DNA from: Anaerolinea sp.
Lineage (GTDB): Bacteria > Chloroflexota > Anaerolineae > Anaerolineales > Villigracilaceae
DNA: 35,705 nt
Assembly: GCA_020049345.1 (NCBI GenBank)
Contig: JAIFKY010000027.1
Coordinates: forward strand, 1 to 35,705
Reading direction: 5' to 3'
In this document: one piece after another, positions 27,575 to 35,025 of the stretch
Position numbering within the stretch: the first letter of the stretch is position 1
How the letters are laid out: each line of letters begins with the position of its first letter
The notes under the pieces: model-generated
Database searches by the model: none
Told to the model about the DNA's origin: nothing
The model's input: the letters and a program-made list of their open reading frames with translations, nothing else
Made by a program: the position numbers and the translations under genes

Positions 27575-27608
27575 ATTTTTTTGAACTGGCAGTATAATAA
27601 CAGGTGAA

Positions 27609-32568: not shown

Positions 32569-32597
32569 TTGACAACCCCCCTTATATTCGCTAAACT
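32569..32597 (+). promoter_or_regulatory. Sigma70-like promoter
   Basis: TTGACA - 17 nt - TAAACT upstream of ATG 32636. Confidence 0.65.
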
Positions 32598-32635
32598 ATA
32601 CGAAAAGACTATGCGCTACCGCGCAAGGATAACCT

Positions 32636-33535
32636 ATGGCAAACATAACTGACTCTGCACATATTACAAGCAAAACCCTGCTCCCTACTGCATTCAACGG
32701 CTGGGAAATGTTCATGTACGATCAAGGGCGTTCGCCGAACACCGTCAAAGCCTTTCTTTCAGATGTTCGTCTGCTGACTCAATTCCTCGCGCCCGATCAA
32801 TCCATCGGCAGTATCACTACGGATGATCTCAACCGTTTCTTTGCGTGGATGGAAAAAGAGCGCGGCATTCCATGCAGCCCAAAAACTTTATCTCGGCGCA
32901 TCACCTCTGTGAAATCATTTTTTCGCTGGCTGCACCAGTACGGCACATTATCCATCAACCCGGCCGAAAAGGTTTTGCAACGCTCTGCCATCAGTCCGCT
33001 TCCGCAAATATTGAGCAATGATGAATATGAGGCTGTCCTGCTTGCCGCAGATCGTCACCGCCGCCAGACCAAGCCAGATGCCCGTTTTTTCACGCTGGTT
33101 TATCTCCTGTTGACCACGGGCATTAAGAAAAGCGAATGTCTGGGCATCCACACCAATCACATTGACCTTCAGGCTAAGAATGGTCCACATATTTTCATCC
33201 GCTATGCCAGTCCGGCAAACCGTTACAAAGAGCGAAAAATAGAATTGAAGGAAGATTGGATTGCCGCCTACAAGGAATATCAGGCGCAATACAAGCCCGT
33301 TGATCAAGTCTTCGCATGGTCGCCGCGCAGATTGGAATATTTGCTTGAAGATATTGGCACAGAAGCCAGCCTGACCAAACACCTGTCCTTTGATATGTGC
33401 CGTTGGACATGCGCCGTGCGCGATTACCAAGCCGGCGTCGAAGCGGATGCCATTCGCCAGAAACTGGGCGTATCTAAAATTCAATGGCGTGAGTTGTTTA
33501 TTAAACTAAAACAATTGAATGGCGAAATGAAGTAG
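32636..33535 (+). CDS. XerC/XerD-like tyrosine recombinase homologue lacking catalytic residues
   Basis: N-terminal SAM-like domain (FMYDQGRSPNTVKAFLSDVRLLTQFL) and catalytic-domain fold motifs TTGIKKSECLGI, KERKIEL, LSFDMCRWTCAVRDYQAGVEADAIRQKLGVS. Confidence 0.82.
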   Translation: MANITDSAHITSKTLLPTAFNGWEMFMYDQGRSPNTVKAFLSDVRLLTQFLAPDQSIGSITTDDLNRFFAWMEKERGIPCSPKTLSRRITSVKSFFRWLHQYGTLSINPAEKVLQRSAISPLPQILSNDEYEAVLLAADRHRRQTKPDARFFTLVYLLLTTGIKKSECLGIHTNHIDLQAKNGPHIFIRYASPANRYKERKIELKEDWIAAYKEYQAQYKPVDQVFAWSPRRLEYLLEDIGTEASLTKHLSFDMCRWTCAVRDYQAGVEADAIRQKLGVSKIQWRELFIKLKQLNGEMK

Positions 33536-33554
33536 GACTTTTGCAATCAACCAT

Positions 33555-33588
33555 AAAAAATCCCGTCCAAAATGGACGGGATTTTTTA
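33555..33588. terminator. Bidirectional intrinsic terminator
   Basis: AAAAAATCCCGTCCA-aaa-TGGACGGGATTTTTTA; overlaps the tilS stop codon. Confidence 0.9.
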
Positions 33589-35025
33589 TGCTCCTTTCTC
33601 GCGCGGACGCGAAATGGAGAAATATAAAACGCTTTTGGTTACCGCCGTAAGCCGATAGGCATGTGCGGGACGATAGCCAGGCACCCAGATAATCTCCTCG
33701 CCCGCGCACAAGAGGGGCCAGTTATCTCTCGCGCGCTGCGGCATTTTCACATTTACAAAGAAGTCGGATAGTTTCTGTGAATGACCGTTCAAACCAAATG
33801 GGGAAAATTGATCGCCCGCGCGGCGGGTTCGCAGATTAAGCGGCTTTGATAAATTCTCCACGTCCAACCAGACCTGAAACATGTCTTCGTTTCGTTCCGC
33901 CTGTTCCCGCGCTAAAACAGGCATTCCCCAACGTTCACAATTAAACTTCCACCCGCCTGCAAGTTCAATTTGGGTTGGGATCGAGACTAGCGCAGAGCCG
34001 ATTCCTGTCAGTTGGGGCCAAAGGTTGAAAGGCAGTTCTGCATCTACGGTGCAAATATATACATGGTTTGCTTCGCGGAACATTCGCAAACCGCCTTTCA
34101 AATCTACACGCGAGAAATGAGTCGGAGAGTTGATCATTGAAACAGCGCGCTCCAGCGTGGAATAGGATACATCCACTGCGGGGTGCAAAGTTTGCATGGC
34201 TTGTTTGACCAGATTGCGTTGAAGCCCAAGCGAACACTTGGAAAGCAAATCAGAGTCGAATGTGATGGAATTCTCATCTGAGCTTGTCACGGTTTCATGC
34301 CAGGCAGTTTCGAGCATTTCCATTAAAAAGACATAATCGCCTTTAAGGGATTGGGACATCCGCAAAACTGCTTCGCGAAATTTTGGGTTGTAACTTTCAA
34401 GGTTGGGAATTAAAAGGTGGCGAATACGGTTGCGCTGAAAATCAATTGAATCGTTGCTTGAATCATAATGCGGGCGCAAGCCATTTGCGGCGCAAAACAC
34501 AACCGTTTCCTCGCGCCACATATTTAACAAGGGGCGCACAATGGGAATTTCGGGATCAAATGTTTTTATGACCGAACGATAAGACATGCCTTTCAAACCA
34601 TTGAGGGCGCTTCCACGCAGAAAGTGCATAATAATGGTCTCTACTTGATCATCTGCCGTATGCCCGACTGCCACCGCCTGGGCGTTTCGTTCACGTGCCA
34701 GCTTGAACATAAAACGATAACGCAGGTTGCGCGCGGCCTCTTCGATGGATAGTTTCTCCTGCTCGGCATGGGCGCGCACATCTTCGCTGCCAAATTGACA
34801 GCCCAACATTAATCGAGAGGCGGTCTTTTCCACCATGCGCGCATCTTCGCCGGACTCTGGGCGAAGTTGATGATCGAAATGCGCGACAACAAGTGAATAG
34901 CCAGCCTGCCGCAATGTTTCCAGCAGGCACAGGCTATCAGGTCCGCCTGAGACACCGACGACAATTGGGCGGTCTTTTACAAGTCCGCACTCACCCTTCA
35001 AAATGGCTTCGATGGTCTCTGACAT
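33586..35025 (-). CDS. tilS: tRNA(Ile)-lysidine synthetase
   Basis: VVGVSGGPDSLCLLETL PP-loop; VAVGHTADDQVETIIMHFLRG; RNRIRHLLIPNL; C-terminal LRTRRAGDQFSPFGLNGHSQKLSDFFVN. Confidence 0.95.
   Translation of the reverse strand: MSETIEAILKGECGLVKDRPIVVGVSGGPDSLCLLETLRQAGYSLVVAHFDHQLRPESGEDARMVEKTASRLMLGCQFGSEDVRAHAEQEKLSIEEAARNLRYRFMFKLARERNAQAVAVGHTADDQVETIIMHFLRGSALNGLKGMSYRSVIKTFDPEIPIVRPLLNMWREETVVFCAANGLRPHYDSSNDSIDFQRNRIRHLLIPNLESYNPKFREAVLRMSQSLKGDYVFLMEMLETAWHETVTSSDENSITFDSDLLSKCSLGLQRNLVKQAMQTLHPAVDVSYSTLERAVSMINSPTHFSRVDLKGGLRMFREANHVYICTVDAELPFNLWPQLTGIGSALVSIPTQIELAGGWKFNCERWGMPVLAREQAERNEDMFQVWLDVENLSKPLNLRTRRAGDQFSPFGLNGHSQKLSDFFVNVKMPQRARDNWPLLCAGEEIIWVPGYRPAHAYRLTAVTKSVLYFSISRPREKGA

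What the first reader, a model, noticed from the sequence alone, without database searches (positions are those of the whole stretch)
32636..33535. XerC/D-like protein with the nucleophilic Tyr replaced by Phe and most of the catalytic set lost
Aligned by eye to XerC/D: Arg I (TGLR-SEL) is Lys in TGIKKSECL (codon 33125-33127). The beta-hairpin Lys is kept (KERKIEL). The H of HxLRHT is Phe (SFDMCRWT), Arg II is kept (CRWT), and the H of LGHS is Val (LGVS). The Tyr eight residues after LGHS is Phe (LGVSKIQWRELF, TTT at 33497-33499). The ORF is intact with a good promoter and terminator, so it looks like a maintained non-catalytic DNA-binding protein, not a decaying gene.
Basis: partly seen in the sequence, partly recalled or inferred. 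Interest (0 to 1): 0.65.

Follow-up and report, generated by a model that had tools for sequence, protein, structure and literature searches.

The report
Conserved dead Xer recombinase in Chloroflexota
A gene that looks like the enzyme bacteria use to cut and rejoin chromosomes has lost nearly all of its cutting parts, yet it has been kept across a large part of a bacterial phylum, usually with a one-of-a-kind DNA motif in front of it, which suggests that it now works by binding DNA and not by cutting it.

Summary
Window 32636-33535 (+) encodes a 299-aa Xer-fold protein (AlphaFold pLDDT 91; best PDB match XerA) that keeps one of six catalytic positions, Arg II (R256). Arg I is K164; the Lys position is N195, not K198; the first His is D253, not Phe; the LGHS His is V279; Tyr is F288. 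This is not local decay: single copy in 36 of 37 genus genomes, about 84% of sampled genomes of its class, 83 of 301 sampled Chloroflexota; dN/dS about 0.05. All 39 dead relatives tested form one clade (support 100/99). The Phe itself is not conserved. New: just upstream lies a 9-mer, CTAYRCGMA, in 1-3 direct copies (51/51 in the genus, 57/71 in other families of the order, 3-7% by chance). The tandem form occurs once per genome in 11 of 12 genomes, always at this gene; its reverse complement resembles the XerC arm of dif. Best explanation: a recombinase turned sequence-specific DNA-binding protein that regulates its own gene, with catalysis left to other, intact recombinases, one of which has its own dif-like palindrome. 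DNA binding itself is inferred, not shown.

The parts
32636..33535 (+). catalytically dead Xer-like protein, 299 aa
   Evidence: ORF; Pfam/NCBIfam; AlphaFold model with PDB match XerA 5hxy, E 4.8e-12, probability 1.00; orthologues
32636..32971 (+). N-terminal core-binding (SAM-like, DNA-binding) domain, residues 1-112; helix 82-101 (PKTLSRRITSVKSFFRWL) is the most conserved stretch
   Evidence: Pfam PF02899 on residues 24-100; mean column identity 0.79 in helix 82-101 against 0.60-0.69 for most other stretches; invariant K83, R87, R88, T90, K93
32972..33532 (+). C-terminal 'catalytic' domain, residues 113-299, active site dismantled
   Evidence: Pfam PF00589 on residues 126-282; alignments
33125..33127 (+). 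K164 at the Arg I position (K in most, R in 3 of 27 within the order); followed by K165, invariant in the order
33218..33220 (+). N195 at the catalytic Lys (XerD K172) position, variable in the family
33392..33406 (+). D253-M-C-R256-W257: first His lost (D253), Arg II invariant (R256), second His replaced by W257
   Evidence: R256 in 40 of 40 rows of A2, W257 in 27 of 27 of A1
33470..33472 (+). V279 at the His of LGHS (V/I/L in the order; L/V/A/I across the phylum)
33497..33499 (+). F288 at the Tyr nucleophile position (variable in the family)
32569..32574 (+). -35 hexamer TTGACA
   Evidence: conserved in the genus
32592..32597 (+). -10 hexamer TAAACT
32596..32604 (+). copy 1 of the CTAYRCGMA repeat (CTATACGAA), overlapping the -10 box
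32609..32617 (+). copy 2 of the repeat (CTATGCGCT), 13 bp downstream, in the leader
33552..33590 (.). hairpin terminator between this gene and the convergent tilS
   Evidence: 18-pair stem

Best explanation
The protein is an ancient, vertically inherited Xer-type tyrosine recombinase that has lost catalysis and works as a sequence-specific DNA-binding protein. Shown by computation: Xer fold; active site gone in every aligned member except Arg II; strong purifying selection; monophyly of the dead proteins; and a repeat, CTAYRCGMA, next to the gene that in its tandem form is found only there. Inferred: the conserved basic core-binding helix reads a XerC-type half-site (5'-TKCGYRTAG), one monomer per repeat; binding across the -10 box and start of transcription represses its own gene; the remaining Arg II and neighbouring new invariants (K165, R200, W257, Q283, W284, E286) hold DNA or the protein interface and not a scissile phosphate for cutting. 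Chromosome-dimer resolution would then fall to separate intact recombinases.
For: Five of six catalytic positions lost and no exception restoring the set. dN/dS 0.04 against the nearest relative, median 0.055. 36 of 37 genus genomes, 21 full copies plus 1 fragment in 24 other genomes of the order, about 249 of 298 in the class (my count at E < 1e-40), 83 of 301 in the phylum with a clear gap to canonical Xer (2.5e-55 against 6.7e-45). One clade, bootstrap 100 / SH-aLRT 99. Fold: pLDDT 91, XerA best. pI 9.3; the best-conserved helix is the basic one in the DNA-binding domain. Repeat upstream in 51/51 (genus) and 57/71 (other families of the order) against 6-7% in shuffles and 2.9% in random flanking windows. 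Tandem repeat exactly once per genome in 11 of 12 genomes, always at this gene; reversed-pattern control 3 hits in all 12. Reverse complement of the repeat agrees with the XerC arm of dif at 8 of 9 positions with the same degeneracies (dif sequences in PMC2731167, PMC3025954). Intact recombinases in the same genomes. No relatives above about 27% identity in the plasmid and phage hits listed and none in viral contigs.
Against: No direct proof of DNA binding. The repeat could be read by another factor or act in the mRNA; it lies almost always on the gene's own strand. The repeat is absent from other classes and from the deeper families of the order although the protein is there, so it is not the whole function. 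The genus-level promoter core is not unusual: the neighbouring histidine-kinase promoter is as conserved (28/28). The likeness to dif was noticed after the fact; by my estimate a random 9-mer would match dif this well about 1 time in 100.
Confidence: 0.55

Rival explanations
1. Non-catalytic architectural partner of an active Xer: it occupies one arm of a dif-like site and supports synapsis or control by an intact recombinase, as one half of a XerC/XerD-type pair.
For: Xer proteins act as tetramers; the upstream repeat resembles the XerC arm; most genomes also hold an intact Xer-type recombinase, and in the genus one with a linked dif-like palindrome.
Against: That palindrome has two matching arms, as expected for one recombinase acting alone. 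Genomes G040 and G047 have the intact recombinase without the dead protein, and G037, G048, G049, G051, G053, G056, G059 (at least 93% complete) the reverse. A heterotypic tetramer with dead subunits could not complete both strand exchanges.
Confidence: 0.15
2. The protein binds DNA but acts mainly elsewhere (chromosome organisation or segregation, or a wider regulon); the upstream repeat is read by another factor or is an mRNA leader element.
For: The protein is more widespread than the repeat (no repeat in other classes); streptococcal XerD-like proteins that are likewise non-recombining lie beside scpA/scpB (from memory).
Against: The repeat is tied to this gene and essentially no other place in 11 genomes, as expected for the gene's own product; no conserved link to segregation genes was seen in the neighbourhood analysis.
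Confidence: 0.22
3. It is still a recombinase that uses another nucleophile or partner residues in trans.
For: Arg II is invariant; L045 has Tyr at the position; other classes have Tyr three residues later (16 of 40 rows).
Against: Both His positions and the catalytic Lys position are lost in all 27 rows within the order, with a single Lys at the last; Arg I is Lys in 24 of 27; the Tyr position is filled by seven different residues.
Confidence: 0.04
4. Decaying gene or remnant of a mobile element.
For: One genus member (G014) has a broken copy with three stops.
Against: Intact in nearly all others, dN/dS about 0.05, conserved synteny with LCP and tilS, no close relatives in phages, plasmids or viral contigs.
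Confidence: 0.01

Closest known systems
XerC / XerD / XerA (dif recombinases)
   Same: Fold and domain order; best structural match XerA 5hxy; Arg II; candidate binding motif like the XerC arm of dif
   Different: Five of six catalytic positions lost; 80-90 bits against cut-offs of 220-335; direct repeats and not an 11-6-11 inverted site
Streptococcal XerD-like protein (XerDL, NCBIfam NF002685/PRK02436)
   Same: Chromosomal, vertically kept Xer-like protein reported not to recombine dif (from memory; the primary paper was not held)
   Different: No match to NF002685 in this genome nor for P0001; different neighbours; different phylum; separate origin likely but not tested by tree
TnsF of Tn6022 (PMC10293859)
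   Same: Inactivated tyrosine recombinase domain used as a DNA-site selector
   Different: TnsF has an N-terminal zinc-finger region and is transposon-borne; this protein has neither
XerS/dif-SL and XerH/dif-H (PMC2731167)
   Same: A Xer gene with a unique site in or near its promoter
   Different: Those enzymes are active and the site is an inverted repeat; in this genus that arrangement belongs to another gene

Membership tests
Tyrosine recombinase fold (Phage_integrase clan) | Core-binding SAM-like domain plus integrase catalytic-domain fold | tested here: met
   Pfam PF02899 and PF00589 above cut-off, 39 of 40 family members; Foldseek XerA E 4.8e-12
Active tyrosine recombinase (XerC/XerD/XerA) | Catalytic R-K-H-R-H/W plus Tyr nucleophile | tested here: not met
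   Only Arg II kept; alignments
XerC or XerD equivalog | NCBIfam cut-off 329.6 / 335.15 bits | tested here: not met
   88.4 and 82.1 bits
Streptococcal XerD-like (NF002685) | NCBIfam model cut-off 178 bits | tested here: not met
   No match in own genome at 1e-10; absent from the P0001 list at E 0.01; 19.8 bits for a distant relative
TnsF | N-terminal zinc fingers, Tn7-type neighbourhood | tested here: not met
   No such domain found; neighbours are LysM, LCP, tilS, epimerase
Sequence-specific DNA-binding protein | Binds a defined DNA site | not testable with these tools
   Only indirect: fold, charge, conserved helix, upstream repeat
Dead-Xer clade described here | Monophyly apart from intact recombinases | tested here: met
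   39 dead against 18 intact Chloroflexota rows, support 100/99; recombinases of other phyla were not in the tree

The most novel reading that the evidence does not exclude
The dead Xer and its one-per-genome repeat form a stand-alone protein-site pair in which a former recombinase marks a single chromosomal locus (a landmark, segregation or cell-cycle switch), not merely a self-repressor.
Probability: 0.1. Interest if true: 0.85.

Novelty: new variant of a known kind. Interest (0 to 1): 0.6.

Why it matters
Catalytically dead tyrosine recombinases are known as isolated cases. Here a whole clade spans much of a phylum, kept under strong selection for a very long time, with a candidate DNA target that looks like half of dif. 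It offers a clean test of how a DNA-cutting enzyme becomes a regulator, and it warns annotation pipelines: a 'XerC/XerD' label in these genomes can fall on a protein that cannot recombine, while the likely working enzyme is another gene with its own linked palindrome.

Tried and rejected
Mobile-element origin: no close relatives in viral contigs, phages or plasmids. Operon-based function: conserved neighbours LysM-LCP upstream and convergent tilS downstream hold within the order but not beyond, and suggest no shared pathway. Rfam: no RNA family in the window. PADLOC: no defence match. A classical dif (XerC arm-6-XerD arm) was not found: hits were no more numerous than the control. Promoter conservation in the genus alone was rejected as evidence for an operator because the histidine-kinase promoter is equally conserved; the repeat across families is the better evidence. 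A conserved 'Tyr to Phe' swap was rejected: the position is variable. The literature searches held no description of this family. Whether the clade occurs outside Chloroflexota is open: the 80 best hits of the genome-wide scan carry Chloroflexota-lineage titles, the other 342 were not listed.

Full report
What is there. The ORF at 32636-33535 (+) encodes a 299-residue protein with the two domains of Xer-type tyrosine recombinases. It scores 88 bits against the XerD model, whose cut-off is 329.6. AlphaFold2 on a 27-row alignment gives pLDDT 91 and pTM 0.64; the relative placing of the two domains is thus less sure than each fold. Foldseek returns only tyrosine recombinases among the 50 best matches, XerA first (E 4.8e-12).

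The active site. Alignment with intact recombinases of the same phylum and with XerA/XerD sequences gives: Arg I = K164; Lys = N195; His = D253; Arg II = R256; His/Trp = V279; Tyr = F288. Across the order R256, W257, R200, K165 and the motif QW(R/T/S)E are kept, while the Lys, first His and Tyr positions vary. Across 40 phylum-wide rows only E167, R200, R256 and G278 are invariant.

It is an old, maintained gene. It is present in 36 of 37 genus genomes and, complete, in 21 of 24 other genomes of the order, in about 249 of 298 genomes of the class (my count of rows with best E below 1e-40) and in 83 of 301 phylum genomes, where the profile scores leave a wide gap to canonical Xer. dN/dS is about 0.05. 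All dead sequences fall on one side of a branch with 100/99 support, and the quick tree broadly follows the taxonomic groups. Within the order the gene lies downstream of LysM and LCP genes and convergent to tilS (82 of 132 loci have tilS, 61 have LCP). It is not found in viral contigs, and only distant canonical recombinases (about 27% identity or less among those listed) appear in plasmids and phages.

A linked DNA element. In the genus the promoter reads GTTGACAA-N-TTCGCTAAACTATACGAAAAGACTATGCGCT with little change. In other families the -10 box and its surroundings change, but the 9-mer CTAYRCGMA persists in one to three direct copies 12-24 bp apart, sometimes well downstream of the -10 box. 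At least one CTAYRCG lies upstream in 51/51 genus genes and 57/71 genes of other families of the order, against 6-7% in shuffled and 2.9% in random flanking sequence; it is rare in other orders of the class and absent in other classes. The tandem pattern is found once, and only once, in 11 of 12 genomes searched, each time directly upstream of this gene; the 16-mer around the -10 box is likewise essentially unique. The reverse complement, TKCGYRTAG, differs by one base from the XerC arm of dif as listed for several bacteria (TTCGTATAA, TGCGCATAA, TGCGTATAA; PMC2731167). This likeness was seen after the fact and is suggestive only.

Who does the cutting. None of 12 genomes has a match over the XerD cut-off, but each has other recombinases, most with the full catalytic set. 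In the genus one of them (L285 type, R-K-H-R-H-Y intact) carries, just upstream, an 11-6-11-like palindrome TTCGATAAGTATTATTATCGAA in 14 of 15 genomes checked (the fifteenth has a degenerate version) and in G309. That is the arrangement of XerS/dif-SL and suggests, without proof, that this is the dimer-resolution enzyme. It was not detected in the window's own incomplete genome (79%).

How it most likely works. The parts needed for binding DNA are conserved (core-binding helix 82-101 with K83, R87, R88, K93; pI 9.3; Arg II), those needed for cutting are not, and the gene sits beside a unique repeat resembling a Xer half-site. The simplest account is a DNA-binding protein that occupies these half-sites and controls its own promoter. 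Binding, repression and stoichiometry are inferences. Since the protein reaches classes where the repeat is missing, either the site has diverged there or another role is older. Rival accounts (silent partner of an active Xer; chromosome organiser) remain open.

Novelty. Dead tyrosine recombinases are known (streptococcal XerD-like protein, from memory; TnsF, PMC10293859). This clade fails the tests for those families and was not found described in the library searched. I rate it a new variant of a known kind.

Noticed in passing
L285:1378-1399 (and just upstream of its orthologues, e.g. G031:C1:3612224, G032:C99:20134, G036:C21:10762): An intact Xer-type recombinase of the same genus has a near-perfect dif-like palindrome TTCGATAAGTATTATTATCGAA immediately upstream (14 of 15 genus genomes), which looks like a new single-recombinase Xer/dif pair; in some genomes the asymmetric centre is inverted relative to the gene.
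   Followed up: partly
L285:1400-1440: The intact recombinase gene appears to be leaderless: TTGACA-17-TATAAT followed directly by about 6 bases and ATG.
   Followed up: no
L036 (G014:C4:1409-2305): One genus member has a broken copy of the dead Xer gene with three stops and a gap, in an otherwise similar neighbourhood; could be assembly error or true loss.
   Followed up: no
L244, L245, L246 (G119): One genome of the class carries three copies of the dead Xer family, two of them with the same matched score and span, in a divergent branch with R-R in place of K-K at Arg I.
   Followed up: no
G327:C1:287398-287419: A near match to the dif-like palindrome lies 68 kb away from the intact Xer gene in this genome, possibly an unlinked dif.
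   Followed up: no
window 27575-27608: The histidine-kinase gene upstream has a promoter element (AACTGGCAGTATAATC) conserved in 28 of 28 genus genomes.
   Followed up: no
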